64,000 nt of DNA from Streptacidiphilus sp. ASG 303 (GTDB lineage Bacteria; Actinomycetota; Actinomycetes; Streptomycetales; Streptomycetaceae). The stretch is from positions 62,001-126,000 of the forward strand of contig NZ_JAJLRA010000005.1 of NCBI RefSeq assembly GCF_020991365.1. The letters run 5' to 3'. Both the position numbers and the translations under genes were made by a program. The notes under the pieces are model-generated. The model was not told the origin of the DNA. It saw only the letters and a program-made list of their open reading frames with translations, and made no database searches. How positions within the stretch are numbered: the stretch's first letter is position 1; every line of letters starts with the position of its first letter. Positions 13,781 through 31,149 of the stretch are shown piece by piece.

Positions 13781-14333
13781 GGGAGCCGCCGGCCCCCTGA
13801 GGAGGACGCACAGGACGCGGACCGCCGCGCGGACCGCCCGGAGCACCGGGCCGGGTCCGCGCGGCGGTGCGCGTCACGGCCGGGACGGGCCGGGTCCGGG
13901 TCCGGGTCCGGACGGACCGGATCGGGCCGGATCGGGCCGGGCCGGGTCGGGCCGGGGGGACGCGACCGCAGGGCGCCGCGGGACACCCGGTCCGCAGCAC
14001 CGGGCCCGGGAGCGCAGGACGCGGGAACGCCGGCCCCGGGGGCACCGCGACGCAGGGGCCCCGGACGCAGGGGCCCCGGACGCAGGAGCAGGCACAGGGG
14101 GGCGGCGGGCGGTGTGCGCCCGGGCGGCGGCGGCCGTCGAGCGTCGCGCACGAACGACCGCTCCCCACCGCGGCCGACCGGGGGCAGGACGGGTTCGGAC
14201 GCGGAGGCTACCGCCGGGTAGCGCGATGGCCTACCGTCGAGAGGCGCCGCCGCCCCGGCGCCCCCGCGGCAGCCGCAGGAAGGCCCCCCACCCGCGCCGG
14301 CGGCTGCCCTCGCAGACGAGGAGTGTGGCCGCG
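13781..14333. other. Low-complexity intergenic region with short direct repeats
   Basis: No convincing gene in these 553 bases. It contains runs of GGGTCCGGGTCC and GGATCGGGCC-like units (about 13890-13960) and a triplicated CGCAGGGGCCCCGGA-like unit (about 14050-14095). The second half presumably holds the promoter of the PucR-type gene. Confidence 0.6.
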
Positions 14334-15737
14334 ATGCACTGCTTCGCCGACGACGACTGGGACGACATCAGGGACGACCTGCCGCAGGAGGTCGTGCCGC
14401 TGCTCCGCGCCGGACTGCCGCACCTGACGGACCTGACGGTGAGGGAGATCCTGAGGTGCGTACCGGAGTTCCGCCGGCCGGCACCGGCCGGCGGTCCGGA
14501 CGCCGCCGGCGGCTGCACCGTCCGGCTCGGCGTGGAACGCGCCCTGGCGGGGTTCGCGGACCGGGCCGCCGCCGTCCGCGGCGCCCCGGACCCGGACACG
14601 GCCGAGCTGTTCCGGTCGCTGGGCCGCGCCGAGGCCCGCGAGGGCCGCGGCCCGGACGCCCTGCGGGCCGCGTACCGGACCGGCGCCCGCGCCGTCTGGC
14701 GGTGGCTGGTGGAGTCCGGCTCCCGCGCCGGCGTGCCGCCGGAGCGGATGTACCGGGTCGCCGAGGCCGTCTTCGCGTACGCGGAGGAGCTCACCGGCCA
14801 CAGTGCCGAGGGGTACGGCGAGGTCCGCACCGCCCTGGCCGGGGAGGTGCAGCGCAACCGGCGGCGGCTGCTGGAACTGCTGACCGGGACGCCCGTACCG
14901 GGCCGCGAGGCCGTCGCCGCCCTGGCCCGCGCCGCACGCTGGCCGCTGCCGGAGACCGTGCGGGCCGTCGCGCTGCGGCCGTCCGGGCGGGCCGGGGAGC
15001 CGGGCCCCCTCCCGCCGGACCCCCTCCTGCCGGCCGCCGGGGTCGACGCCCTCGCGGACACCGAGGGGCCCGAGCCGTACCTGCTCCTCGCCGACCTCGG
15101 TCCGCGCACCCGCCCGGTGCTGGACCGGGCCCTGGGCGGCCGGCCGGCCGCGGTGGGGCCGCCGGTGCGGCTGGCGGACGCGGGCGTCTCGCTGCGGTGG
15201 GCGCGCCGCCTGCTGGCCCTGGGCGCCCGGGGCCTGGGCGAGGGACCGGTGCTGCACTGCGCCGACCACCTGCCGGCCCTGGTCCTGCTGGGCGACGAGA
15301 CCCTGGTCCGGATCATGGCCGGGCGCCGCCTGGCACCGCTGCAGAAGCTGACGGTCCGCCAGCGGGAACGGCTGGCGGAGACCCTGCTGGCCTGGCTGGA
15401 CTGCGGCGGCAGCGCGCCCGGGGTGGCCCGGCTGCTGGGGGTCCACCCGCAGACCGTGCGCTACCGGCTGCGGCAGATCGAGGAGCTGTTCGGGGAGGGG
15501 CTGCACGACCCGGACGTCCGCTTCGAGCTGGAACTGGCCCTGCGGGCGCGCCGCCTGCTGTCCGGCCTGGCCCCGTCCACCGTCCCGGGGGCCGGTGCCG
15601 GGACCGGGACCGGGGCGGGGGGCGCCGGGGACGCGGGCGCGCCCGGCGGACTGCCGACGCTGCGGCGGTCCGTCGCGGCGCGGGTGGCCGGACCGGCCGG
15701 GGTCTCCTCGCGGGCGGCGGCCCGGCCCGCCCGCTGA
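14334..15737 (+). CDS. PucR/CdaR-type transcriptional regulator
   Basis: A 467-residue regulator. The N-terminal half resembles the RsbRD-type helical sensor domain found in many Streptomyces PucR proteins (AELFRSLGRAEAREGRGPDA then LRAAYRTGARAVWRWL). The middle is a poorly conserved GGDEF-like/CdaR region. The C-terminus is the PucR helix-turn-helix, LTVRQRERLAETLLAWLDCG followed by GVARLLGVHPQTVRYRLRQI. Start: ATG at 14334, with GAGGAG eleven bases before it; the longer frame to 14112 is Arg/Pro-rich and unlike the family. No metabolic target gene is adjacent, so the effector is unknown. A 14-bp-stem terminator follows. Confidence 0.87.
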   Translation: MHCFADDDWDDIRDDLPQEVVPLLRAGLPHLTDLTVREILRCVPEFRRPAPAGGPDAAGGCTVRLGVERALAGFADRAAAVRGAPDPDTAELFRSLGRAEAREGRGPDALRAAYRTGARAVWRWLVESGSRAGVPPERMYRVAEAVFAYAEELTGHSAEGYGEVRTALAGEVQRNRRRLLELLTGTPVPGREAVAALARAARWPLPETVRAVALRPSGRAGEPGPLPPDPLLPAAGVDALADTEGPEPYLLLADLGPRTRPVLDRALGGRPAAVGPPVRLADAGVSLRWARRLLALGARGLGEGPVLHCADHLPALVLLGDETLVRIMAGRRLAPLQKLTVRQRERLAETLLAWLDCGGSAPGVARLLGVHPQTVRYRLRQIEELFGEGLHDPDVRFELELALRARRLLSGLAPSTVPGAGAGTGTGAGGAGDAGAPGGLPTLRRSVAARVAGPAGVSSRAAARPAR

Positions 15738-17749: not shown

Positions 17750-18958
17750 CTACGGGACGGCCGCGAGGGCGTAGTCGGGCAGGTCGATGTCCCTGGCCTT
17801 GGCGAACTGCGCGGCGAGCAGGTTCCGCAGCGGCCGGCGGTTCATCGCGCGCATCGAGGCGTTCCGCAGCCGGATGGCCAGGGCGCCGGAGGGGGCGTAC
17901 CCGGAGGCGCCCCCGGGCGGCAGCTGCTGCGCCTGGGCGACGTAGGGGCGCATGAGCCGGTCGTAGGCCGCGAAGGCGGCACGGTGGTCGCCCCCGGCGG
18001 CGGAGAGCTCGCCGGCCAGGACGTAGGCGCCGACCAGGGCGAGGCTGGTCCCCAGGCCCGTGAGCGGCGTCGGGCAGTACCCGGCGTCGCCGAGCAGCAC
18101 GGTCCGCCCGCGCGACCAGCGGTCGAGGTGCACCTGGCCCACGGAGTCGAAGGAGAAGTCGGGCGCCTCGCGCATGGCCCGCAGGAGGCGCGGGACCTCC
18201 CACCCGGCACCGGCGAAGCGCCGGGCCAGCAGGTCCCGCTGGGCCGCGGTGTCGCGGCGGTCGAGGGCGAGCGGCTCCGACCGGAAGCTGAGCCCCGCCT
18301 TGGTCTCGCCGGCCAGGCGGCCGGGGCGGGCCGAGGCCACGAGCCCGCCGGGCGCGTTGTGCATGAGGAACCAGCCGTCGAGGCCCATGTCCTCGGCGAC
18401 GGTGAACCAGGAGGTGTACAGGCCCAGGGGCCGGACGCACTCCTCCTCCGGGCCGAAGGCCAGGGCGCGCACCGCGGAGTGCAGCCCGTCCGCGCCCACG
18501 ACGAGCCCGAAGCGGCGCGGACCGGCCTTCTCGAGGACGGCGGTGACGCCGTCGGCGTCCTCGGCGAGCCCGGTCACGGTGTCGTCGAAGAGGTACCGGG
18601 TGCCCGGCAGGGCGGCCTCGTGGAGCAGGTTCGCGAGGTCGTCGCGGAGGATCTCGACCTCGGAGACGATGCCCTCGCCGCCGAAGGCGTCCACCGGCAT
18701 CCGGGCGGCGACGCGGCCGCGGGCGTCGACCATCGCGATGCCGCGCTGGTCGACGGAGAGGGCCTTCGCCCGGTTCAGCAGGCCCATCCGCTCGACCACG
18801 GTGCGGCCGGCGCCGCGCAGGTCGACGGTCTGGCCGCCCGGCCGGGGGCCGGGGGCGCGCTCGACGACGGTGGGCGTGAAGCCGGCCCGGCAGAGCCAGT
18901 GGGCCAGGGCGTTCCCGGCGATGCCGCCGCCGGAGATGAGGATGTCCGTGTTCTCCAT
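17750..18958 (-). CDS. FAD-dependent monooxygenase (class A flavoprotein)
   Basis: A 402-residue p-hydroxybenzoate-hydroxylase-fold enzyme. It shows the N-terminal dinucleotide motif ILISGGGIAGNALAHWLCRAG, the DG motif LVVGADGLHSAVR and the second FAD motif RTVLLGDAGYCPTPLTGLGT. Such enzymes hydroxylate or inactivate aromatic compounds and antibiotics using NAD(P)H and O2; TetX-like tetracycline inactivators belong here, but the substrate cannot be read from sequence. It is divergent from a GntR-TetR hybrid regulator, with operators between. The promoter has a good -35/-10 pair whose predicted transcript starts a few bases from the ATG, so the message is probably leaderless. Confidence 0.88.
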   Translation of the reverse strand: MENTDILISGGGIAGNALAHWLCRAGFTPTVVERAPGPRPGGQTVDLRGAGRTVVERMGLLNRAKALSVDQRGIAMVDARGRVAARMPVDAFGGEGIVSEVEILRDDLANLLHEAALPGTRYLFDDTVTGLAEDADGVTAVLEKAGPRRFGLVVGADGLHSAVRALAFGPEEECVRPLGLYTSWFTVAEDMGLDGWFLMHNAPGGLVASARPGRLAGETKAGLSFRSEPLALDRRDTAAQRDLLARRFAGAGWEVPRLLRAMREAPDFSFDSVGQVHLDRWSRGRTVLLGDAGYCPTPLTGLGTSLALVGAYVLAGELSAAGGDHRAAFAAYDRLMRPYVAQAQQLPPGGASGYAPSGALAIRLRNASMRAMNRRPLRNLLAAQFAKARDIDLPDYALAAVP

Positions 18959-19143: not shown

Positions 19144-20148
19144 ATGCCCGTGGACGGGACGGAGGCGCCGCGCTCCGGCCGGATCGCCGCGGAGCTGCGC
19201 CGGCGGATCGCGGCGGGCGAGCTGGCTCCCGGGGACCGGGTGCCCTCGACCCGGGAGATCACCCGCGAGTGGGGCGTGGCGATGGCCACCGCCACCAGGG
19301 CGCTCACCGAACTGCGCCGCGAGGGCCTGGTCCGGGCGGTCCCGGGCGTCGGCACCGTCGTCGCCGACGCCGGCGCGGGCGCGGGCGCGGGCCGGCCGGT
19401 CCGGGACGCCCGGCAGACCGGACCGCGCCCCGCCCCCGCCCCCGCCCCAGCCCCTGCGGCACGCGCCCGCCGCAGGAGCGCCACCGACGGGGCGCTCACG
19501 CCCGGACGGGTCGTCACCACCGCCGTCGCGGTCGCCGACGCGGAGGGGCTGGCCGCGGTCTCGATGCGCCGGGTCGCCGCCGAGCTGGGCGTCTCCACCA
19601 TGGCGCTCTACCGGCACGTGGCCGACAAGGACGACCTGCTCCTGCAGATGATGGACGCGGCCTTCTCCGAGCAGCCGCTCCCCGCCGACCCGCCGGAGGG
19701 CTGGCGGGAGCGGCTCACGGTCGCCGCCCGGCTGCTGTGGGGCATGTTCCGCCGCCACCCGTGGCTCGCCCCGGCCCTGTCCCTAACCCGGCCCCAGCCG
19801 GTGCCCGGCGCGCTGCCCTTCACCGAGTGGGCCCTCGCGGCCCTGGAGGGCCGCGGCCTCGACCTCCCCACGGTCATGACCGCCCACCTCACCCTGGTCA
19901 ACTACGTGCGCGGCACCGCCGTCAACGTCGAGGCGGAGACGGAGGCGGAGGCGCTCAGCGGCCTGGACGTCGAGGAGTGGCTGGAGACCCAGGGACCGGC
20001 GCTCGGGGCGCTCCTGGCCACCGGCCGCTTCCCCGCCCTAGGACGGCTCACCGCAGCCGGGTACGAGCTCGACCTGGACGTCCTCTTCGAGTTCGGCCTG
20101 CAGCGCCTCCTCGACGGCATCGCGGTGCTCCTCGGCGAGACGCCCTGA
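19144..20148 (+). CDS. GntR-TetR hybrid transcriptional regulator
   Basis: A 334-residue protein with two DNA-binding domains. Residues about 12-75 form a GntR winged helix (GRIAAELRRRIAAGELAPGD...VPSTREITREWGV). After an Ala/Pro-rich linker (about 80-115), residues about 118-165 form a TetR helix-turn-helix (VSMRRVAAELGVSTMALYRH then VADKDDLL), followed by a TetR_C ligand-binding domain. GntR-to-TetR fusions are known in actinomycetes. It is divergent from the FAD monooxygenase, and the intergenic region carries two different palindrome families, one per binding domain at face value. It most likely represses the monooxygenase and itself until an aromatic or antibiotic ligand binds. Confidence 0.88.
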   Translation: MPVDGTEAPRSGRIAAELRRRIAAGELAPGDRVPSTREITREWGVAMATATRALTELRREGLVRAVPGVGTVVADAGAGAGAGRPVRDARQTGPRPAPAPAPAPAARARRRSATDGALTPGRVVTTAVAVADAEGLAAVSMRRVAAELGVSTMALYRHVADKDDLLLQMMDAAFSEQPLPADPPEGWRERLTVAARLLWGMFRRHPWLAPALSLTRPQPVPGALPFTEWALAALEGRGLDLPTVMTAHLTLVNYVRGTAVNVEAETEAEALSGLDVEEWLETQGPALGALLATGRFPALGRLTAAGYELDLDVLFEFGLQRLLDGIAVLLGETP

Positions 20149-20287: not shown

Positions 20288-21019
20288 TCACCGCCCGCCG
20301 AGCAGGCTCCGGACCGCCAGGCGCGAGACGTTCGCCAGGCCCCGCACCAGCACGGGGGTGAGCAGGACCAGGGCCACGCCGAGCAGGCAGGTCCCGGTGA
20401 TCTGGGCGGGCGAGGTGAGGACGTACTCGTGGTGCCTGCCGTTCCGGGTGTACTCGAAGAGGCGGTAGCCCGGCCAGGGCGTCCAGCGGGCGAGGGCCCA
20501 GTGGTAGGCGGGGTAGAGCGCGAGCACCCAGCCGGTGACCAGGAACGTCAGCGAGACGGTGGAGGCGAGGATCGCCCAGGGGAGCATCACCACCTGGTAC
20601 AGCACCGCCCTCCAGCCCGCGGCGTCGGCCAGCCGGGCGGTGACGAGGCCCCAGAACCCGGGGCGTCGCGGCCGGACGGGCGGCGGGGCGGCGACGTCGA
20701 GCCCGAGCATGCCCCGGGCCCGCGCGCGCTCCAGTGCGCCGAGGCCCCGCGCGCCCGCCGTCAGCGCGGCCAGCACCGGCAGCCCGACCACGGTCACGAG
20801 CAGGGAGGCGCCGGCGGAGAGGAGCGTGACGGCGAAGCAGAAGCCCGCGACGGCGACGGGCAGCGACGACAGGGCGTGGCCGATCTCGCGGTAGGCGGCA
20901 CCGGACACCGGCGCCAGCCAGAAGGGCGGCCGCCGGGCGGCGCCGGACGCGGTCCGCTCGCGGACGCCGCGGCCGGCGCGGTGGCCGTACTCGCCGGACA
21001 GCGGGGTGCTGGTGCTCAT
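20288..21019 (-). CDS. Standalone sensor-domain membrane protein
   Basis: A 243-residue protein matching the putative sensor domain that usually sits N-terminal to Streptomyces histidine kinases. It has four hydrophobic segments (about residues 45-95 and 125-235) with the signatures REIGHALSSLPVAVAGF, LPWAILASTVSLTFLVTGWV and YRLFEYTRNGRHHEY. Here no kinase domain follows, and no kinase or response regulator gene is adjacent. The ATG at 21019 has GAGGA six bases upstream. It converges on the GntR-TetR gene. The function is unknown; it might pair with a kinase elsewhere. Confidence 0.78.
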   Translation of the reverse strand: MSTSTPLSGEYGHRAGRGVRERTASGAARRPPFWLAPVSGAAYREIGHALSSLPVAVAGFCFAVTLLSAGASLLVTVVGLPVLAALTAGARGLGALERARARGMLGLDVAAPPPVRPRRPGFWGLVTARLADAAGWRAVLYQVVMLPWAILASTVSLTFLVTGWVLALYPAYHWALARWTPWPGYRLFEYTRNGRHHEYVLTSPAQITGTCLLGVALVLLTPVLVRGLANVSRLAVRSLLGGR

Positions 21020-21264
21020 CTCGGTCCTCGTTCCTCCGGGGTTCCGGCTCCCTCGCGGCCGGCTCCCCCACGATGTCCCGCCGGACCCCTCCCCCGGAAT
21101 CCGGCGGGCCGCCCGGTGCGGGGTGGGGCTGTCCCCACCCCGGCGTCCCCGCGGGCGCCGCGCCCGGGCGGATCCGTGCGGGCCGGACCGGCACGCGGGG
21201 AGGCCGGGGCCGGACCCGCGGACGCGGACGGAATACGGGCCGCGGCCGCGCGGAATCCGCACTC

Positions 21265-21469: not shown

Positions 21470-21571
21470 CGTCGCGGCGAGGGGAAGCGGAGTACCGGAA
21501 GAATCGGAAAACAATTCCCGCAAGGCTCGCCGAGCATTTCCGTCATCCGCGACGACCGCAGGAGGAAATTC

Positions 21572-21652
21572 ATGAAGCTCGTCGGTTCCCTCAAGAAGAA
21601 GCTCTCGGGCGAGAAGAGCCTGAAGGCGTACGCCTGGTACATCTGGTACTAG
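21572..21652 (+). CDS. Atropopeptide (tryptorubin-type) RiPP precursor peptide
   Basis: A 26-residue peptide. The start is very well supported: AGGAGGAAATTC immediately precedes ATG. The first 20 residues are a Lys-rich leader (MKLVGSLKKKLSGEK..., ending LKAY). The last six, encoded right before TAG, are AWYIWY. That hexapeptide is the sequence of tryptorubin A, a Streptomyces atropopeptide in which a P450 forms C-C and C-N bonds between Trp and Tyr side chains. The next gene, 143 bp downstream, is a cytochrome P450 with unusual features, as the pathway requires. The gene falls below the length limits of routine gene calling. The leader must be removed by a protease not encoded as a dedicated cluster gene. 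Confidence 0.93.
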   Translation: MKLVGSLKKKLSGEKSLKAYAWYIWY

Positions 21653-21795
21653 AAGGCGGGCGGTTCGCCGGAAGCGCGGGGTCGTCGAATCCCCTGCGGG
21701 AAAGGCGGCCGCGGCCTCCCGGCATTCCGCTCTCCGGCGCGTCCGGCGCGGCCCCCGAAGGCCCGCCGGGCGCGCCGCCCGCTCCTGGAGATCCC

Positions 21796-22842
21796 ATGCA
21801 CGCTTCCGTCACAGCCCCGGGGCGCCGCGCGACGGCCTTCGCCCCGCGGATCGACGCGCTCCTCCGCGACCACCTCGGCGAGGATGTCTTCCGACTGGAT
21901 CCCGGAACCGTGGGAGTCGCCTCTCCGGCGCTGATCGACGAGATCCTCGCGGCCCGTCCCGCCAACGACTTCGAACGTCCCACGTTCAAACCGCTCCAGG
22001 GCAGGGCCATTCCCAGGACCGAGGCGTCCGCGCTCATGCGCGCGGTCGGCCAGGACGTCCGCGCCGCCCTGCAGACCCCGGTGGACCTCTCGGCCGACCT
22101 GTCGGGCGAGTGGCCGCACGTCGCGCACAACCATCTCCGGGACCTGGTCTTCGGGTCCGACCCGTACCGGCTGAAGGTCCTGGTGGACCGCAGGCTGGAG
22201 TGGACGCCCAAACTGACCTGGGCCGTCATCGCCGGTGGTGCGGCCCTGCCCCGGGACCGCGGCACCGGACGCCCGGCCTCCCGCCTCGCCGCCGCCACCG
22301 CGGCCCCGACGTACGGGGAACGCCGCCACGCCATGGGCATGTACCGGCGGGCGGCCGCTCCGGTCTGCTTCACCGTCTCCGCCCTCGTCGCGAACGCGCT
22401 GTGGCTCGGCGCCCCCTTCGCCGACGACGTGCCCAACCGGCACATCATCCACGAGTCGCTCCGGCTGCTCCCGGTCTCCTGGAACCTGCTCCGGGTGGCC
22501 TCCCCCGAGTTCCACGCCCTGGACGGGCGGATCGGCGCCGGGGACGACGTGCTGATGCTGCCGCTGCTGAGCCACCGTGACCCCGCCGTCTGGGACGCGC
22601 CGCTGGAGTTCCGCCCCGAGCGGTGGAACCACCTCGACCCCGACGACACCCCGGGCTACCTACCCTTCGGCCACGCCAACGAGCGCTGCTGGGGCCGCCA
22701 CATGGTCATGCCGCTCGCCGAGCGCCTCCTCGACATCGCCCGGCACAACGGCCTCGCCCCGGACCCGGGGCAGACCACCGCCCGCGTGCCCCTCGCCGGC
22801 CTGATGAGCGTCGTCGGCGTCCGGATGGTGCCGCGCTCCTGA
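21796..22842 (+). CDS. Cytochrome P450 of the atropopeptide cluster
   Basis: A 348-residue P450, shorter than the usual about 400 residues. Seen: the ExxR pair in HESLRL (Glu220, Arg223), FRPERWN, and the heme loop FGHANERCWGRHMV with Cys298 as thiolate ligand. The usual I-helix AGxDT motif is not recognisable; the corresponding stretch reads VSALVANALWLGAPF. A degenerate oxygen-activation motif fits enzymes that crosslink substrate side chains rather than hydroxylate. By context it should install all crosslinks on the AWYIWY core. The ATG at 21796 has a GGAG eight bases before. No ferredoxin or reductase gene is adjacent, so redox partners come from elsewhere. A strong terminator follows. 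Confidence 0.9.
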   Translation: MHASVTAPGRRATAFAPRIDALLRDHLGEDVFRLDPGTVGVASPALIDEILAARPANDFERPTFKPLQGRAIPRTEASALMRAVGQDVRAALQTPVDLSADLSGEWPHVAHNHLRDLVFGSDPYRLKVLVDRRLEWTPKLTWAVIAGGAALPRDRGTGRPASRLAAATAAPTYGERRHAMGMYRRAAAPVCFTVSALVANALWLGAPFADDVPNRHIIHESLRLLPVSWNLLRVASPEFHALDGRIGAGDDVLMLPLLSHRDPAVWDAPLEFRPERWNHLDPDDTPGYLPFGHANERCWGRHMVMPLAERLLDIARHNGLAPDPGQTTARVPLAGLMSVVGVRMVPRS

Positions 22843-22885: not shown

Positions 22886-22928
22886 GGCCGACGGGCGCCG
22901 GAAACGCTCGTCCCGGCGCCCGTCGGCC
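22886..22928. terminator. Terminator closing the atropopeptide operon
   Basis: Perfect 16-bp stem GGCCGACGGGCGCCGG / CCGGCGCCCGTCGGCC with an 11-base loop. It lies between the P450 and the convergent protease gene. Confidence 0.78.
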
Positions 22929-23055: not shown

Positions 23056-23889
23056 TCAGCCGCCCGCGGCGACGGCGCGGCGGTAGAGGGCGGTGACGCC
23101 GGGCCCGAAGACGGAGCTGTAGGAGACCTCGTCGGTGTCTCCGCCCTGCTCGTGGCCGCCGATGACGCCGACGACGGTGCCGGTGCGGGCCGGGTCGGCG
23201 CGGTCGGTGCCGGTCACCCAGGGGCTGCCGCTGGTGCCCTGGCTGTACGAGGAGCAGGCGATGCGCAGCTGCCCGGCGCTGATCCGGGTGGCGGTGTTGG
23301 TACAGGTGAGGGGCTCCTCGCCGGAGTCGGGGTAGCCGGTGAGGCGGACCCGGGCGTGGTCGGCGGGGCTGGCGCCGAGGCGGTTGCCGCCCACCGCGTC
23401 CTCGACGCGGGCCCCGTCCGTGCGGCTGACGACGGCGAACGCGACGTCGGCGTCCTCGTCGCCGTCGGAGTCCCAGCGGGGGTCGGTGAAGGTGCGGGCG
23501 AGGTGCCACACGCCGTAGGGGGCGGTGCCGTTGCGGTACCCGGGGACGAAGAGCAGGTCGCCGCCCGCCCCGGGGTCGTCGAGGCAGTGGGCTGCGGTGA
23601 GGACCAGGCTGCGGCCGGGGCTGTCGACGACGCTGGCCGTGCAGAAGTGCCCGTTGGCGAGGCTGCCCCGGAAGAGTGCGCCGACCCGGGCGGCCTGGGG
23701 CGTGCGGTGGGAGACGTGGGCCGTGCCGGGGCGGTGGGCCAGGACGGCGCTGGTGGGCGTGGCGCCGGCGGCGAGCAGGAGGGAGGCGAGCAGGACGACG
23801 CCGGCGGGGGCGCCGGGCCACCGGCGCCGCCCGGCGGCGGGCCCCGGCGCCTCGGCGGTCGCGGTCTTCACGCCCCTACTGTGCACCAT
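23056..23889 (-). CDS. Secreted trypsin-like serine protease
   Basis: About 277 residues (ATG at 23889; a GTG at 23871 with a nearby TAGGGG is an equally possible start). After a signal helix (about residues 28-48) comes a chymotrypsin-fold domain with all three catalytic residues: His101 in VLTAAHC, Asp148 in DEDADVAF and Ser220 in QGTSGSPW. The active-site motif is GTSGSP rather than GDSGGP, which places it with the trypsin-like peptidases of the V8/glutamyl-like branch. It follows nrfD on the same strand by only 20 bp but is functionally unrelated to formate dehydrogenase. Its neighbour in the other direction is the RiPP P450. Confidence 0.87.
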   Translation of the reverse strand: MVHSRGVKTATAEAPGPAAGRRRWPGAPAGVVLLASLLLAAGATPTSAVLAHRPGTAHVSHRTPQAARVGALFRGSLANGHFCTASVVDSPGRSLVLTAAHCLDDPGAGGDLLFVPGYRNGTAPYGVWHLARTFTDPRWDSDGDEDADVAFAVVSRTDGARVEDAVGGNRLGASPADHARVRLTGYPDSGEEPLTCTNTATRISAGQLRIACSSYSQGTSGSPWVTGTDRADPARTGTVVGVIGGHEQGGDTDEVSYSSVFGPGVTALYRRAVAAGG

Positions 23890-23909
23890 GGCGCGCCCGC
23901 GCGCGGGGG

Positions 23910-25106
23910 TCACACGCCCTCCGGACCGCCGGTGTCCGCCCGGCCGGCGGCGGCGCCCGTGCCCGGGGACCCGCCGTCCGGGCGGTCGCCGTCCCCGGGC
24001 CCGCCACCGGGACGTCCGCCGTCCGGACGTCCGCCGTCCGGGTGGTCGCCGGCCGGGTGGTCGCCGACCGGGTGGTCGCCGACCGGGCGGTCGCCGGCCT
24101 GCTCGGCCCGGCGCCGCTCCAGGCGCTCGCGCTGCGGCAGCACCGTGTACTTCGGGTCCTCCGCCGACTGCACGCCCGCGTGGAAGACCCCGAACCGGGT
24201 GCAGGCGGAGGCGGCCAGCAGGGCCGCGCCGCTCAGCGCGGAGACGGCGCGGCTGCGCCGCCCCAGCACCGCCCCGGCGGCGCCCGCCGCCGTGAGCAGT
24301 CCGGCGGCGCGCATCAGCCGCCCGGCCCTCCCCTCGCGGTAGGTCTCGGCGACGACGCCGAGGCGCCGCTCCATGGCCTTCACGGCGGCGGTCTCCACGG
24401 CCGCGCCGAGGAGCGCGGCGCTGCGCGCCGGGCCGCTCTCCGCGAGCGGGCCGGTGACGAGCGCCATGCCGGAGGCGGCGACGGCGGCGGAGCCGACGAA
24501 GACGACGGGCAGCTCGCGGTGGGCGTCGTGCCAGGCCGGCACGGCGGTGTCGGCGGCGAGGACGGCGGTGTAGGAGGCGACGGCGGGCCCGAGGAGGGCG
24601 GCGGCGCCGGTGGCGGTGCGGCCGAGGCGCGGGAGCAGGCCGGTCACGTCGAGCGCGGCGGCGGCGCCGGCGGCCGGGCCGTACGCGGCGAGCAGCCAGG
24701 AGCCGACGGACATCGGCGAGGTGGGCTTGAGGACCCGCAGCATGTTGTAGAAGCGCCCGGGGCGGCCCAGGTCGTGGACGAGGGCGGCCGCGGAGGCGGT
24801 GATCGCCGCGAGCGAGGAGAGCTTGAGGGCGCGGGCGGTGGCGGGCCGGCCGGTGGCCTGGGCGCCGGCGGCGAGGACGGACCCCGCGCCGGCGAGGCCG
24901 CCGAGGAAGAAGTACCCGGCGATGTCGAGCGGCTCCCAGCCGGGCTTCCTGATGACGGGCCGGCCGTAGTAGGAGGTGAACTCGGCCTGCGGCACCATGC
25001 TCTGCTCGGCGCGCCGCCCGCGGCGGCGCAGGCCGCCGCCGACCTCGGCCTCGCGGCCGGGGCGCTCCCCGCGGAGGCCCTGCCTGGTGACGTCGGAGGT
25101 GCTCAT
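23910..25106 (-). CDS. NrfD-type membrane subunit of formate dehydrogenase
   Basis: A 398-residue NrfD/PsrC-family protein with eight or more hydrophobic helices between about residues 55 and 310. It opens after a soluble N-terminus with YYGRPVIRKPGWEPLDIAGY then FFLGGLAGAGS, the quinone-site region of the family. It should anchor the FdhA-FdhB catalytic pair to the membrane and pass electrons to menaquinone, in place of the cytochrome b subunit of Fdn-type enzymes. ATG overlaps the fdhB stop (ATGA). The last about 60 residues are a hydrophilic tail of repeated (V/A)GDHP and DGGRP units, not part of the family domain. Confidence 0.88.
   Translation of the reverse strand: MSTSDVTRQGLRGERPGREAEVGGGLRRRGRRAEQSMVPQAEFTSYYGRPVIRKPGWEPLDIAGYFFLGGLAGAGSVLAAGAQATGRPATARALKLSSLAAITASAAALVHDLGRPGRFYNMLRVLKPTSPMSVGSWLLAAYGPAAGAAAALDVTGLLPRLGRTATGAAALLGPAVASYTAVLAADTAVPAWHDAHRELPVVFVGSAAVAASGMALVTGPLAESGPARSAALLGAAVETAAVKAMERRLGVVAETYREGRAGRLMRAAGLLTAAGAAGAVLGRRSRAVSALSGAALLAASACTRFGVFHAGVQSAEDPKYTVLPQRERLERRRAEQAGDRPVGDHPVGDHPAGDHPDGGRPDGGRPGGGPGDGDRPDGGSPGTGAAAGRADTGGPEGV
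23996..24100 (-). repeat. Repetitive C-terminal tail of the NrfD gene
   Basis: Imperfect 12-15 bp tandem units (CCGTCCGGACGTCCG-like and GGTGGTCGCCGACCG-like) encode the repeated GDHPVGDHP / DGGRPDGGRP tail. This looks like recent repeat expansion. Confidence 0.7.
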
Positions 25107-26125
25107 CGGCGGCGGGTCCTTCCGAGGAGGGCGGCGAGGCCGGAGGGGCCGGGGCGGCCGTGGGCGGCGAAGACGGCGGCGAGGCCGCCGAGGAGGCCGG
25201 CGGCGGCGATCCCGGCCTGCCGCCACATGGCGGGCAGGTCGCGGGTGGTGACGACGGGGTCCGGCGGCAGGCCGTAGACCTCGGGTTCGTCGAGGAGGAG
25301 GAAGAAGGCGCCGTCGCCGCCGACGCCGTCCCCGGGGTCCTCGCCGTACAGGCGGGCGTCGGCGACGCCGAGGTCGTGCAGCTGCTCGACGCGGGCGGCG
25401 GCGCGCTCGCGCAGTTCGTCCAGGGGGCCGAACTGGATGGAGTCGGTGGGGCACGCCTTGGCGCAGGCGGGCTCCTGGCCGGCGCCGAGCCGGTCATAGC
25501 ACATGGTGCACTTGAAGGCGCGTCCGTCGCCGGGGCGCTGCTCGATGACGCCGTACGGGCAGGCGGGCACGCAGTAGCCGCAGCCGTTGCAGACGTCCTG
25601 CTGCACCACCACGGTCCCGAACTCGGTGCGGAAGAGCGCACCGGTGGGGCAGACGTCGAGGCAGGCGGCGTGGGTGCAGTGCTTGCAGACGTCGGAGGAC
25701 ATCAGCCAGCGCAGCTCGGTGCGGCCGTCGGCGGTGGGCGGCCCGGGGGTCGTGGGGGTGATCGCGGCCCGGTCGACGGGGGTGGCGGAGCCCTGGGCGG
25801 CGAGCGCCAGGACGTCGAGGCCGCTGTGGTCGACGTCGGCGTGGGTCATGCCCAGCGGCTTGCCCTGCTCGATGAAGGCGACGTGCCGCCAGGTGGAGGC
25901 GCCCAGGCCCTGGGAGTTGTCGAAGGACATGCCGGTGAACTCCAGCCCGTCCTCGGGGATGGCGTTCCACTCCTTGCACGCCACCTCGCACGCCTTGCAG
26001 CCGATGCAGACGGAGGTGTCGGTGAAGAAGCCGACCCGGGGCGGGGCGTCGGTGTGCCCGGCGTCGCGGGCCGGGTCCGGCTCGGCCCCGGCGAGCAGGT
26101 TGCGGCCGATCAGCGAGTCGGTCAT
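25103..26125 (-). CDS. fdhB: Formate dehydrogenase beta subunit (4Fe-4S ferredoxin-like)
   Basis: A 340-residue iron-sulfur protein with sixteen cysteines in four ferredoxin motifs: CIGCKACEVACKEWNAIP, CKHCTHAACLDVCPTGAL, CNGCGYCVPACPYGV and a split CTMC...CAKACPTDSI. It wires electrons from the molybdopterin subunit to the membrane subunit. A C-terminal hydrophobic helix (about residues 307-326, GIAAAGLLGGLAAVFAA) resembles the anchoring helix of FdnH-type beta subunits. Both ends overlap neighbours by 4 bp (ATGA), so FdhA, FdhB and NrfD are translationally coupled in a 1:1:1 arrangement. Confidence 0.93.
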   Translation of the reverse strand: MTDSLIGRNLLAGAEPDPARDAGHTDAPPRVGFFTDTSVCIGCKACEVACKEWNAIPEDGLEFTGMSFDNSQGLGASTWRHVAFIEQGKPLGMTHADVDHSGLDVLALAAQGSATPVDRAAITPTTPGPPTADGRTELRWLMSSDVCKHCTHAACLDVCPTGALFRTEFGTVVVQQDVCNGCGYCVPACPYGVIEQRPGDGRAFKCTMCYDRLGAGQEPACAKACPTDSIQFGPLDELRERAAARVEQLHDLGVADARLYGEDPGDGVGGDGAFFLLLDEPEVYGLPPDPVVTTRDLPAMWRQAGIAAAGLLGGLAAVFAAHGRPGPSGLAALLGRTRRR

Positions 26126-29100
26126 CCCTTGGTCTCCGTTCCGGTGGAGGCGGTGATCCCGGCCCGCTCCCGGTAGTCGCGGACGAGGTCCAGCAGGCGG
26201 GGCCCGCGCGGGCGGCGCCCGGGGCGGATGTCGGCGGTGAGCGCCTTGTCCTCCTGGATGTGCACGTTGGGGTCGAGCGCCATGGCGGTCAGCTCGTTGA
26301 CGGCGTCGCCGGTGGTGTGGCCGTTGGGGCCCCAGTGGAACGGCATGCCGATCTGGTGGATCGTCCGGCCGCCGGCCCGCAGCGGCGTCATCCGCTCGGT
26401 GACCAGCACCCGGGCCTCGACGGCGCCGCGCGCGGTGACGACGGTGGCCCACCCGGCGTGCTCCAGGCCGCGCTCGGCGGCGAGCTCCGGGGAGACCTCG
26501 CAGAAGAAGGCGGGCTGCAGCTCGGCGAGGTAGGGGGACCAGCGGGTCATGCCGCCGGCGGTGAAGTGCTCGGTGAGCCGGTAGGTGGTCACCACGTACG
26601 GGAAGACCTCGGAGCCGGGGTCGCCGGGACCGGGGTGCATCGGGTTGTGGTGGTGGGCGAGGAGCTGCCGGACGGGGCTGCGCTGCTGCTTGCCGTACAC
26701 CGGGTTGCGGACCGGGGAGTCCTGCGGCTCGTAGTGGGTGGGCAGCGGCCCGTCGACCAGCCCGGCGGGCGCGTACAGCCACGCCTTGCCGTCGGCCTGC
26801 ATGATGAACGGGTCGTCGCCGGCGAGGGCGTCGGTGCCGGCGGCGTCCTCGGGCGGCCGGTAGCCGGGGGCGCGGTCGGGGATGAAGTCGGGCACGTCGT
26901 GGCCGGTCCACCTCCCCTGCTCGGCGTCCCACCACACGTACGCCTTGCGCTCGCTCCACGGGTTGCCGTCGGGGTCGGCGGAGGCCCGGTTGTAGAGGAT
27001 GCGGCGATTGGCGGGCCACGCCCAGGCCCACTCGGCGGCGACCCAGTCCTGCTCCGTGTGCGGCTTGCGGCGGGCGGCCTGGTTGACGCCGTCGGCGTAC
27101 ACGCCGCAGTAGATCCAGCAGCCGCAGGAGGTGGAGCCGTCGTCCCTGAGCTCGGTGTACGCGCCCAGGGGTGCGCCGTCGGGCCCGCGGCCGTTGATCT
27201 CGGCGAGGACTGCCTCCGCGCTGGGCTCCTCCAGGGGGCCCTCGGTGGGGTAGTCCCAGACGAGGTCGAGGACCGGGCGGTCCATGGGGTCGGTGGACTC
27301 CCGCAGCCGCTCCTTGATCCGGCGGCCCAGGTGGTACATGAACCACAGGTCGCTGCGGGCCTCGCCGTCGGGCTCCTTGGCCGCATGGTGCCACTGGAGC
27401 ATGCGGTTGGTGTTGGTGAAGGAGCCGTCCTTCTCGGTGTGGGCGGCGGCGGGGAAGAAGAAGACCTCGGTGCCGATGTCCTCGGTGCGCATCTCCCCGG
27501 TCTCGATCTCCGGGCCGTCCTTCCACCAGGTGGCGGACTCGATGAGGGAGAAGTCGCGGACCACCAGCCAGTCGAGCTCCGCCATGCCGAGCCGCTGCAT
27601 CTTCGTGTTGGCCGAGCCCACGGCGGGGTTCTCGCCCATGAGGAAGTAGCCCTTGCAGGTGCCGTCGAGCTGGGCGAGGACGGTCTCGTAGGTGCTGTGG
27701 GAGCCGGTGAGGCGCGGCAGGTGGTCGAAGCAGTAGTCGTTCTCGGCGGTGGCCGCGTCGCCCCAGTAGGCCTTGAGGAGGCTGACGACGTAGGCGCGCA
27801 TGTTCGCCCAGAAGCCCTTCTCGGCCTTCACGGCCTCGACGAAGGCGTCGAGGTCCTCGTGCTGGTGGGCGTGCGGCATGGGGATGTAGCCGGGCAGCAG
27901 GTTGAACAGGGTGGGGATGTCGCTGGAGCCCTGGATGGAGGCGTGGCCGCGCAGGGCCTGGATGCCGCCGCCGGGGCGGCCGATGTTGCCGAGCAGCAGC
28001 TGCAGGATGCAGGCGGTGCGGATGTACTGGGCGCCGACGGTGTGCTGGGTCCAGCCGACGGCGTAGACGAACTCGGAGGTGCGGTCGGGGCCGGAGTTCT
28101 CCACCAGGGCGCGGCAGACCTCCAGGAAGGTCTCGCGGGGGATGCCGCAGGTCTCCTCGACCATCTCCGGGGTGTAGCGGGCGTAGTGCCGCTTGAGGAC
28201 CTGGTAGACGCAGCGCGGGTGCTGGAGGGTCTCGTCGCGCTGCGCCCGGCTCGACGCGGGCGCGCCGCCGGAGCCGTGGGACTCGGAGCGGCCGGACTCG
28301 GCGACGCCGTGGTTCCCGGCGTTGCGCTCGTCGTAGAGGGAGTCGCGGTCCTCGGCGGCGGCCTGGACGTCGGCTCCCTCGTACTGCCAGCTGGAGACGT
28401 CGTAGTGGCCGGTCTCCTCGTCCAGGCCGGAGAAGACGCCGTCGAGGTCCTCGGTGTCGCGGAAGTCCTCGCTCACCAGGGTGGCGGCGTTGGTGTAGTG
28501 CAGGACGTACTCGCGGAAGTCGGAACCGGTGCTGAGCACGTGGTTGATGATGCCGCCGAGGAAGGCGATGTCGGTGCCGGCCCGGATGGGCACGTACAGG
28601 TCCGCCAGGGCGCTGGTGCGGGAGAAGCGCGGGTCGACGTGGATCACCTTGGCGCCGCGGGCCTTGGCCTCCATGACCCACTGGAAGCCGACGGGGTGGG
28701 CCTCGGCGAAGTTGGAGCCCTCGATGACGATGCAGTCGGAGTTCTGCAGGTCCTGGAGGAAGGTGGTGGCGCCGCCGCGGCCGAAGGAGGTGCCGAGGCC
28801 GGCGACGGTGGAGCTGTGGCAGACGCGGGCCTGGTTCTCGACCTGGACGATGCCGAGGGCGGTCCACAGCTTCTTGATGAGGTAGTTCTCCTCGTTGTCG
28901 AGGGTGGCGCCGCCGAGGTGGGCGATGCCCATGGTGCGGTTGACCTGCTTGCCGTCCAGCTCGGACTGCCAGGTCTCCCAGCGGGTGCGCAGGATGCGGT
29001 CGACCACCATGTCCATGGCGGTGTCCAGGTCGAGGGACTCCCAGTCGGTGCCGTACGGGCGCCGGTAGAGCACCTCGTGGCGGCGGGCCTCGCCGGTGGT

Positions 29101-29385
29101 GAGCTGGAGGCTGGCCGAGCCCTTGGGGCACAGGCGGCCCCGGCTGACCGGCGAGTCGGGGTCGCCCTCGATCTGGACGACCTCGCCGTCCTTGACGTAG
29201 ACGTTCTGGGCGCAGCCGACGGCGCAGTAGGGGCAGACCGACTTCACCACCCTGTCGGCGGTCTCGGTGCGGGCGGTGAGGGCGCGGGTCTGCCGGGACT
29301 CCGCGGCGGCGCCGCGCCCGAGCGGGTCGCCTCCGCTCAGCTGCCGGTACACCGGCCAGTCCTGGATCCAGGTGCGTACGCCCAT
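26122..29385 (-). CDS. fdhA: Formate dehydrogenase alpha subunit (Mo/W-bis-MGD, Cys-type)
   Basis: A 1087-residue FDH-N/O-type catalytic subunit. The N-terminal 4Fe-4S ligands are Cys51, Cys54, Cys58 and Cys86. The metal ligand is a cysteine (Cys189 in NQARVCHSSTVAGLGTSFGR) where the E. coli enzymes carry selenocysteine; the following His is conserved. A C-terminal molydopterin-dinucleotide-binding domain ends the protein. It oxidises formate to CO2. Unlike FdnG there is no twin-arginine signal at the N-terminus (MGVRTWIQDWPVYRQL), so the active site should face the cytoplasm. GGGAGGA eight bases before the ATG supports this start. An insertion around residues 335-385, rich in Ser/Asp/Gly, is not part of the usual domain. 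Confidence 0.94.
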   Translation of the reverse strand: MGVRTWIQDWPVYRQLSGGDPLGRGAAAESRQTRALTARTETADRVVKSVCPYCAVGCAQNVYVKDGEVVQIEGDPDSPVSRGRLCPKGSASLQLTTGEARRHEVLYRRPYGTDWESLDLDTAMDMVVDRILRTRWETWQSELDGKQVNRTMGIAHLGGATLDNEENYLIKKLWTALGIVQVENQARVCHSSTVAGLGTSFGRGGATTFLQDLQNSDCIVIEGSNFAEAHPVGFQWVMEAKARGAKVIHVDPRFSRTSALADLYVPIRAGTDIAFLGGIINHVLSTGSDFREYVLHYTNAATLVSEDFRDTEDLDGVFSGLDEETGHYDVSSWQYEGADVQAAAEDRDSLYDERNAGNHGVAESGRSESHGSGGAPASSRAQRDETLQHPRCVYQVLKRHYARYTPEMVEETCGIPRETFLEVCRALVENSGPDRTSEFVYAVGWTQHTVGAQYIRTACILQLLLGNIGRPGGGIQALRGHASIQGSSDIPTLFNLLPGYIPMPHAHQHEDLDAFVEAVKAEKGFWANMRAYVVSLLKAYWGDAATAENDYCFDHLPRLTGSHSTYETVLAQLDGTCKGYFLMGENPAVGSANTKMQRLGMAELDWLVVRDFSLIESATWWKDGPEIETGEMRTEDIGTEVFFFPAAAHTEKDGSFTNTNRMLQWHHAAKEPDGEARSDLWFMYHLGRRIKERLRESTDPMDRPVLDLVWDYPTEGPLEEPSAEAVLAEINGRGPDGAPLGAYTELRDDGSTSCGCWIYCGVYADGVNQAARRKPHTEQDWVAAEWAWAWPANRRILYNRASADPDGNPWSERKAYVWWDAEQGRWTGHDVPDFIPDRAPGYRPPEDAAGTDALAGDDPFIMQADGKAWLYAPAGLVDGPLPTHYEPQDSPVRNPVYGKQQRSPVRQLLAHHHNPMHPGPGDPGSEVFPYVVTTYRLTEHFTAGGMTRWSPYLAELQPAFFCEVSPELAAERGLEHAGWATVVTARGAVEARVLVTERMTPLRAGGRTIHQIGMPFHWGPNGHTTGDAVNELTAMALDPNVHIQEDKALTADIRPGRRPRGPRLLDLVRDYRERAGITASTGTETKG

Positions 29386-30210: not shown

Positions 30211-30384
30211 TCCGGGAGGCCCGGAGCAGGGCGCGCCCCTGCACGGGACCACCCCGTGCGGGACCGCCCCGCGGGGGACGGTCCCGCACGGAGCCGTCCC
30301 GCCCCGGCCTCCCCGGGCGACCGCCGCCGTCCGCCCCGCCACCCGTTCCCGCACCCCGTTCCCGTCACCCCTGGAGGTACCGCC

Positions 30385-31149
30385 GTGTCCGAATGGCTCG
30401 CCCTCACCCTCGCCATGGCCGCCGCCGGGGCGGTGGTCGTCTCCGTGGTGGTGCTGCGGCAGCGGCGCATCCCGGAGGACGACGACCCCTCCGAGACCCC
30501 CGACGTGATCGAGTACATGACGATGATGATCGGCGTGGTCTACGCCATCGTGCTGGGCCTGGCGATCGCCGGCGTCTGGGAGGGCCGCAGCGGCGCGCAG
30601 GCGGGCACGCTGCAGGAGGCGCAGGCGCTGCACGAGGTCGCCTCGCGGGTGCAGGTGTACCCGCCGGCCGTCCGCGACCGCACCCGGGCCGACATCGACG
30701 CGTACGTCTCCTACGTGGTGCACACCGAGTGGCCGCACATGGCGGCCCGGGGCGAGCTGACCGACCGGGGCGGGGCGCTGCTGGAGCGGGTGCGTCGCGA
30801 CGTCACCGACCGCGCGCCGCAGGGCGACCTGGAGGGGCAGGCGTACCAGCCGCTGGTCGACCAGGTCGCCCTGGCGGACCTGGCCCGCACCTCGCGCGGC
30901 CAGAACGCCGGGGAGACCATGCCGCCGATCGTCTGGTTCGGGCTGGTCGCGGGCGCGCTGGTCACGGTGGGGCTGGTCTTCACGCTGCAGATCCGGCGCT
31001 CGGCCCGGGAGCTGCTGCTGGCGGGGCTGTTCAGCGCCCTGATCGCGTTCCTGCTCTTCCTGATCTGGGACTTCGACGCGCCCTTCGCCCGCGGCCTGTC
31101 CGTGACGGCGGGGCCCTTCCTCGACCTCTTCCCGCACGTGGCGGGCTGA
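30385..31149 (+). CDS. DUF4239 membrane protein
   Basis: A 254-residue protein with transmembrane helices at about residues 4-25, 49-70, 188-208 and 215-235, and a soluble helical middle. The pattern (EYMTMMIGVVYAIVLGLAIA then GVWE... and TLQIRRSARELLLAGLFSAL) matches the DUF4239 family, which is remotely like bestrophin channels. The GTG start at 30385 has GGAGG eight bases upstream. Function unknown; an ion-channel role is only a family-level hint. Confidence 0.8.
   Translation: MSEWLALTLAMAAAGAVVVSVVVLRQRRIPEDDDPSETPDVIEYMTMMIGVVYAIVLGLAIAGVWEGRSGAQAGTLQEAQALHEVASRVQVYPPAVRDRTRADIDAYVSYVVHTEWPHMAARGELTDRGGALLERVRRDVTDRAPQGDLEGQAYQPLVDQVALADLARTSRGQNAGETMPPIVWFGLVAGALVTVGLVFTLQIRRSARELLLAGLFSALIAFLLFLIWDFDAPFARGLSVTAGPFLDLFPHVAG

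What the first reader, a model, noticed from the sequence alone, without database searches (positions are those of the whole stretch)
21572..22842. Tryptorubin-type atropopeptide cluster: a 26-codon precursor plus one P450
Seen: an 81-base ORF with an excellent ribosome binding site whose product ends in AWYIWY, followed 143 bp later by a short, unusual P450 (348 residues, ExxR and heme Cys present, no clear AGxDT) and a strong terminator. Known: tryptorubin A is a ribosomally made hexapeptide Ala-Trp-Tyr-Ile-Trp-Tyr, crosslinked between aromatic side chains into a single atropisomeric shape, and atropopeptide clusters need only a precursor and a P450. Inferred: this locus encodes tryptorubin A or a compound with the same core. 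The precursor is missed by ordinary gene prediction.
Basis: partly seen in the sequence, partly recalled or inferred. Interest (0 to 1): 0.95.

Follow-up and report, generated by a model that had tools for sequence, protein, structure and literature searches.

The report
Two-gene tryptorubin-type crosslinked peptide cluster
A bacterium most likely of the Streptomyces family carries a 26-codon peptide gene ending in Ala-Trp-Tyr-Ile-Trp-Tyr next to one P450 gene, a known kind of cluster predicted to make the rigid crosslinked hexapeptide tryptorubin A, and its enzyme appears to sit on an early side branch of this enzyme family.

Summary
The 81-base ORF at 21572-21652 (MKLVGSLKKKLSGEKSLKAYAWYIWY) scores 59.6 bits against NCBIfam's tryptorubin precursor model (cut-off 33). 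The P450 (348 aa) lies 143 bp downstream and falls inside the atropopeptide P450 family. All three published defining features are met: class P450, KSLK leader motif, core Trp2. The short P450 without a clear AGxDT is normal for this family. Seven flanking genes show no shared neighbourhood with 80 related loci, so the pair appears to be the whole cluster. The product is most likely tryptorubin A, but one core can carry other bridge patterns, so that stays inferred. This is a new member of a known kind: the core recurs in 29 of 125 P450 rows (window included), and antiSMASH 8 has a rule for the class. Two additions: the enzyme is on an early branch, apart from the SPB074-type enzyme (AU p 0.006), and AWYIWY is inferred as the ancestral core on its lineage. 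Outside the window, a sister P450 clade (40-44% identity) has a precursor with a Trp-x-x-His core and no KSLK in 19 of 19 loci; I found no paper on it in the library held, which lacks key papers.

The parts
21560..21565 (+). ribosome binding site AGGAGG of the precursor gene
   Evidence: sequence; 6 bases before the ATG
21572..21652 (+). precursor peptide gene, 26 codons, MKLVGSLKKKLSGEKSLKAYAWYIWY
   Evidence: NF038372 59.6 bits, cut-off 33; homologous precursor upstream of the P450 in 79 of 80 related loci
21614..21625 (+). KSLK leader motif (residues 15-18), thought to anchor the leader in the P450
   Evidence: sequence; motif defined in PMC11450843
21632..21649 (+). core peptide AWYIWY (residues 21-26), the tryptorubin A sequence
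   Evidence: sequence; core boundary by analogy with the published clusters
21787..21790 (+). GGAG, likely ribosome binding site of the P450 gene
   Evidence: sequence
21796..22842 (+). atropopeptide cytochrome P450, 348 aa, predicted to install the crosslinks
22312..22410 (+). I helix (residues 173-205), followed after only 8 residues by the K helix (214-224): no helix modelled where ordinary P450s have J/J'
   Evidence: AF2 secondary structure; same short stretch in the alignment
22453..22464 (+). ExxR (ESLR, residues 220-223)
   Evidence: sequence and alignment
22666..22695 (+). heme loop FGHANERCWG (residues 291-300), Cys298
   Evidence: sequence and alignment
22886..22928 (.). 16-bp GC-rich hairpin between the convergent P450 and protease genes, likely terminator without a T-run
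   Evidence: fold z -4.1; no hit in the consensus scan

Best explanation
A 26-codon precursor gene ending in AWYIWY and an adjacent atropopeptide-family P450 gene form what appears to be a complete two-gene cluster, predicted to make tryptorubin A. Likely steps: the ribosome makes the 26-residue precursor (inferred from the ribosome binding site and conservation); its basic leader with the KSLK motif would dock on the P450 and thread the core to the heme (from published modelling of the relative); the P450 would then join Trp2, Tyr3 and Trp5 by a Trp-Trp carbon-carbon bond, a Trp-Tyr carbon-nitrogen bond and a carbon-nitrogen bond from Trp5 to the backbone (places taken from laurentirubin and varsorubin by analogy); a general host protease would cut after residue 20, and an aminopeptidase may remove Ala1 to give tryptorubin B. 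Shown here: the genes, their homology, the motifs, the enzyme's place in the tree. Not shown: expression, bridges, release.
For: Precursor model match. P450 inside the atropopeptide family, with a homologous precursor upstream in 79 of 80 related loci. Core identical to tryptorubin A's: one search gives tryptorubin B as Trp-Tyr-Ile-Trp-Tyr and says that it arises by loss of the N-terminal Ala. Published: one P450 installs all three tryptorubin crosslinks (PMC12352619 introduction), and the leader is thought to be cut by a general protease (PMC11450843 passages). The window enzyme has W142, F192, T193, E296 and W299, which 102 of 102 enzymes of the WxxW group outside the ScaB-like rows share and 3 of 3 ScaB-like rows lack. 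P450 fold predicted with high confidence. Of seven flanking genes sought within about 6 kb of the P450 in 80 relatives, only one weak regulator hit. No second P450 match on the same 377-kb contig.
Against: No expression or mass data. The same core can end with other bridges: ScaB on LauA gives a single Trp-Trp C-N bond, and lau with its second P450 adds an ether. The enzyme is 65% identical to the SPB074-type enzyme and not its closest kin. Varsorubin shows one P450 giving several bridge patterns. Coding constraint on the precursor is modest between near relatives (pN 0.18 against pS 0.20 with L009, pN 0.16 above pS 0.13 with L023; pN below pS in 76% of 3160 pairs). Two of 41 further whole-genome loci (L147, L149) showed no precursor by my pattern. 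The 3 ScaB-like rows were recognised by their TWxIWYS cores, not by accession.
Confidence: 0.8

Rival explanations
1. The cluster is an atropopeptide cluster, but this early-branching P450 installs only one bridge, so the product is a monocyclic scabrirubin-like peptide with the tryptorubin sequence.
For: The window enzyme branches near the ScaB-like enzymes; ScaB acting on a precursor with the WYIWY core gives only the Trp-Trp C-N bond (PMC12352619).
Against: The window enzyme carries W142, F192, T193, E296 and W299, which the 3 ScaB-like rows lack and 102 of 102 others have; one clade with the ScaB-like rows is disfavoured (AU p 0.03).
Confidence: 0.1
2. The product has the tryptorubin bridges plus a further change made by an enzyme encoded elsewhere, or a different set of bridges.
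For: lau-type clusters add an ether bond by a second P450; the genome has ten further P450 matches, all on other contigs.
Against: No other P450 match on the contig; neighbours are not conserved with relatives.
Confidence: 0.06
3. The genes are intact but silent in the native strain, so no product is made there.
For: The four clusters of the AtropoFinder paper were characterised by heterologous expression; no sigma-70-like promoter found (a weak test in this group).
Against: Intact reading frames, ribosome binding sites and conserved motifs. This rival concerns expression, not what the genes would make.
Confidence: 0.2
4. The 81-base ORF is a chance reading frame beside an unrelated P450.
For: Very short ORF overlapped by longer frames on both strands.
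Against: NF038372 E 2.6e-16; one match in the genome; same arrangement in 79 of 80 relatives.
Confidence: 0.01

Closest known systems
tryptorubin A cluster (try/trp; P450 WP_007820080.1), Streptomyces
   Same: Two genes, KSLK leader, identical core AWYIWY, atropopeptide P450.
   Different: The SPB074 locus L032, which I take from recall (not by accession; one search gave no support) to be of this type, has another leader and a P450 65% identical to the window's in another supported clade; one clade with it is rejected (AU p 0.006).
lau cluster (laurentirubin B / tryptorubin B)
   Same: Same WYIWY pentapeptide after trimming; LauB1 with LauA gives tryptorubin B (PMC11450843).
   Different: lau has a second P450 that adds an ether bond; none here on the contig.
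sca cluster (scabrirubin, ScaB)
   Same: Precursor plus P450, early-branching enzyme.
   Different: Heptapeptide core TWFIWYS, one C-N bond only; rows with this core type lack the W142/F192/T193/E296/W299 set found in the window enzyme.
Sister P450 clade with Trp-x-x-His cores (loci L119-L137, found here)
   Same: Same two-gene layout, 27-residue precursor with a basic leader, Trp2 in the core, P450 of similar length.
   Different: 40-44% P450 identity, no KSLK, core AWVLHVI type with one Trp and one His; of three precursors tested none reaches a family cut-off.

Membership tests
atropopeptide (as redefined in PMC11450843) | atropopeptide class-defining P450 | tested here: met
   up to 82% identity to family enzymes, inside the family in two trees
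atropopeptide (as redefined in PMC11450843) | KSLK motif in the leader | tested here: met
   residues 15-18
atropopeptide (as redefined in PMC11450843) | Trp at core position 2 | tested here: met
   AWYIWY
tryptorubin family RiPP precursor (NCBIfam NF038372) | score over the curated cut-off of 33 bits | tested here: met
   59.6 bits
bitryptide subfamily (xWxxWx with KSLK) | second Trp at core position 5 | tested here: met
   AWYIWY; definition as told in PMC11450843
tryptorubin A producer | three crosslinks in one atropisomer | not testable with these tools
   needs LC-MS and NMR
orthologue of the tryptorubin A P450 (TryB) | closest kinship with the TryB-type enzyme | tested here: inconclusive
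   one clade with L032/L025 rejected, AU p 0.006, but L032 is taken as TryB-type from its precursor and recall, not by accession
scabrirubin type (ScaB-like) | TWxIWYS core and the residues at 142, 192, 193, 296, 299 seen in rows with that core | tested here: not met
lau type | second P450 in the cluster | tested here: not met
   no other PF00067 match on contig C156
biarylitide | five-residue precursor | tested here: not met
   26-residue precursor; definition from PMC13417212 passages

The most novel reading that the evidence does not exclude
Tryptorubin chemistry is the old core of a two-branched peptide system. On one branch AWYIWY is the founding sequence, kept unchanged on the window's early lineage and lost and regained elsewhere. 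The other branch, a sister P450 clade, makes an undescribed class of Trp-x-x-His bridged peptides, a bond that ScaB could not make when His was put at that place.
Probability: 0.35. Interest if true: 0.7.

Novelty: new member of a known kind. Interest (0 to 1): 0.35.

Why it matters
Taken alone the cluster is one more of several hundred atropopeptide clusters. Its use is evolutionary: Tan et al. (PMC12352619, Discussion) say that it is open whether other early-diverging enzymes are as promiscuous as ScaB. The window enzyme appears to be an early-diverging one with the full tryptorubin core, so expressing it would test when multi-bridge chemistry arose and whether W142, F192, T193, E296 and W299 go with it. 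The sister Trp-x-x-His clade, if its bridge is real, would be a new kind of P450-made peptide crosslink.

Tried and rejected
Conserved neighbourhood: seven flanking ORFs (FAD monooxygenase, GntR/TetR-type regulator, sensor-domain protein, the ORF with the trypsin domain, formate dehydrogenase, and the ORFs at 14112-15737 and 30256-31149) were sought in 80 relatives, which hold at most about 6 kb each side; one weak regulator hit in L081. So the protease next door, on the other strand, is not claimed as the leader peptidase.

I-helix threonine: T193 (102 of 102 WxxW-group enzymes, Gly in the 3 ScaB-like and 19 WxxH enzymes) might replace the missing AGxDT Thr. Profile alignment to five ordinary P450s of the same genome is reliable only from the K helix on, so this is left open.

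Foldseek and VIA-align say only 'P450 fold'; I saw no RiPP-crosslinking P450 in the 50 rows shown of each, and that absence means nothing.

Class-wide and relatives searches gave 3 of 394 and 34 of 297 genomes. No further full-length clade came out; G037 has two partial matches on separate contigs (68% and 53%), left as they are. In some searches only 5 to 7 candidates per genome were scored, so counts are lower bounds.

Slips: one search held a wrong ten-base range as a fourth row; only its first three rows are used. In one search sixteen minus-strand loci were read on the wrong strand; one search corrected them. The 125-row tree dropped rows over 97% identical (140 to 125), L083 (partial match) and L091; L057, which reads as only 105 residues, was in that tree but left out of the site count. 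The 102 WxxW-group rows include L147, for which no precursor was found.

Literature: Trp-His and sequence-string searches found no paper on the WxxH precursors.

Rfam on nine loci, including the window's own (L089): no match.

Full report
OBSERVATION. The ORF at 21572-21652 reads MKLVGSLKKKLSGEKSLKAYAWYIWY, with AGGAGG six bases before its ATG. The P450 ATG lies 143 bp downstream at 21796 with GGAG at 21787-21790; the gene ends at 22842. ExxR and the heme Cys are present. A 16-bp GC hairpin follows at about 22886-22928 (z -4.1), without a T-run.

FAMILY. The precursor matches NCBIfam NF038372, 'tryptorubin family RiPP precursor', at 59.6 bits against a cut-off of 33, and is the only match in the window's own genome. 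The P450 finds 421 homologues at E <= 0.001 in the protein collection (120 listed, and only the candidates sharing most words were scored) and 84 relatives in the species genome collection, of which 80 were kept. A homologous short precursor lies upstream of the P450 in 79 of those 80 loci; the exception, L083, is a locus in which only the second half of the P450 matches. Of 41 further loci from the whole-genome searches that were examined, partly the same strains, 39 have one; L147 and L149 showed none by my pattern. The paper that defines the family (PMC11450843; outline with abstract, Results parts 1-3 of 4, Conclusion and passages seen) asks for the class P450, the KSLK leader motif and Trp at core position 2. 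All three are met.

SURROUNDINGS. Neighbours are a FAD monooxygenase (17750-18958), a GntR/TetR-domain regulator (19144-20148), a sensor-domain protein (20288-21262), a trypsin-domain protein (within 23056-25641) and a formate dehydrogenase (26122-29385). Seven flanking ORFs were sought within about 6 kb of the P450 in 80 relatives; one weak regulator hit was found. The pair is therefore the whole cluster as far as can be seen; the contig has no second P450 match. The family of the genome is taken as that of Streptomyces because contigs of its family members have the lengths of named Streptomyces records (for example 11,344,947 bases); its own genus has three genomes held, and only this one carries the P450.

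PLACE IN THE TREE. A 67-row tree rooted on the sister clade first splits off three enzymes with TWxIWYS cores (TWFIWYS is the published ScaA core), then L094 (weakly, 87/66), then two large groups. The window sits with P0003-P0006 and P0008 (support 99/97) in a 23-row group (91/90). The SPB074-type locus L032, which I take from recall to be of the tryptorubin A type, sits in the other, 34-row group (100/100) with Xanthomonas and many Streptomyces enzymes. Forcing the window clade together with L032 and L025 is rejected (AU p 0.006); forcing it together with the ScaB-like rows is disfavoured (p 0.03). The published rooting with P450Blt also puts ScaB nearest the root (PMC12352619; outline with abstract, Introduction, Results part 1 of 3, mutagenesis section and Discussion seen).

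THE CORE. AWYIWY occurs in 29 of 125 rows, window included. On the 67-row tree the AWYIWY rows do not form one clade (AU p 2.7e-26; at least 11 changes). The AtropoFinder paper suggests that this core evolved several times. A simple equal-rates reconstruction refines that: AWYIWY is inferred at the ancestor of all enzymes other than the ScaB-like ones (0.93) and on the window's lineage (0.94-0.99), while the ancestor of the group that holds L032 is inferred as AWYHWY (0.93). So the window's copy is likely a retained old core and L032's a regained one. The model is crude, ten rows have unknown cores, and the precursors of the window's five nearest kin were not seen.

BRIDGES. Five residues, W142, F192, T193, E296 and W299, are present in 102 of 102 WxxW-group enzymes other than the ScaB-like ones and replaced in all 3 ScaB-like ones. 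The window has all five. ScaB makes one bridge even on the WYIWY core, whereas the tryptorubin P450 makes all three and LauB1 with LauA gives tryptorubin B. I infer that the window enzyme is of the multi-bridge type. That link of residues to bridge number rests on three sequences on one side and is untested.

SISTER CLADE. In 394 genomes of the family, 65 match at E <= 1e-60. There are 52 matches at 60-100% identity and 19 at 40-44%; five genomes hold both kinds. All 19 lower loci were fetched, and all 19 have a 27-residue precursor ending 111-254 bp before the P450 match, such as MKMIKALVKKFKKDEELAQHAWVLHVI, with the core pattern [A/S]W..H[V/L]I, one Trp and one His, and no KSLK. They form one side of a branch with 100 support. 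Of three such precursors tested, two match no NCBIfam model and one reaches 13.6 bits against the tryptorubin cut-off of 33. A protein search with one of these P450s lists 90 hits, 85 of them at 62-94% identity, the named ones mainly Streptomyces and Kitasatospora; their precursors were not seen beyond the 19 loci. ScaB did not cyclise mutants with His in place of the bridging Trp or Tyr, so these P450s would do chemistry ScaB cannot. That the bond is Trp-His is inferred from the core alone. By the published definition they are not atropopeptides (no KSLK). I found no paper with these sequences, but Nam et al. 2023, the main survey of such P450 clusters, is not held.

VERDICT. A real, apparently complete, two-gene atropopeptide cluster with the tryptorubin A core; a new member of a known kind, modest in interest by itself, with an early-branching enzyme that makes an open question testable.

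Noticed in passing
L119-L137 (19 loci, for example L133:1263-1346): Sister P450 clade, 40-44% identical to the window enzyme, each locus with a 27-residue precursor whose core is [A/S]W..H[V/L]I: a possible undescribed class of Trp-His bridged peptides.
   Followed up: partly
upstream of the WxxH precursors, L119-L137: In most of the 19 loci an inverted repeat of the form TTCGG-TTCCGG-CCGGAA-CCGAA (CCGAAT in 14 of 19), then a short hairpin with weak covariation (6 predicted pairs, 3 with changes on both sides, -0.84 kcal/mol), and a TCGGTTA-GGTCC-like stretch further up; no Rfam match in the eight such loci scanned. Possible operator or leader RNA.
   Followed up: partly
window 21653-21795: The stretch between precursor and P450 folds strongly as RNA (-92.3 kcal/mol, z -2.6, 1 of 200 shuffles as good). 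Its length varies in relatives (about 75-228 bp), so it may just reflect GC content.
   Followed up: no
window 23056-25641 (-): Trypsin-like serine protease domain encoded convergently right after the cluster; the true gene probably starts well inside this ORF. Not found beside the cluster in relatives.
   Followed up: partly
window 19144-20148 (+): Regulator with a GntR DNA-binding domain fused to TetR-type N-terminal and C-terminal domains.
   Followed up: no
window 17750-18958 (-): FAD monooxygenase scoring 243 bits against the tetracycline destructase subfamily model, below its cut-off of 550.
   Followed up: no
L084:5511-5773: Xanthomonas locus with two different atropopeptide precursors in a row (ending SWPHWY and AWEGYISY) before one P450.
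   Followed up: no
L067, L073, L077: Atropopeptide clusters in records titled Luteibacter and Burkholderia multivorans, outside Streptomyces and Xanthomonas.
   Followed up: no
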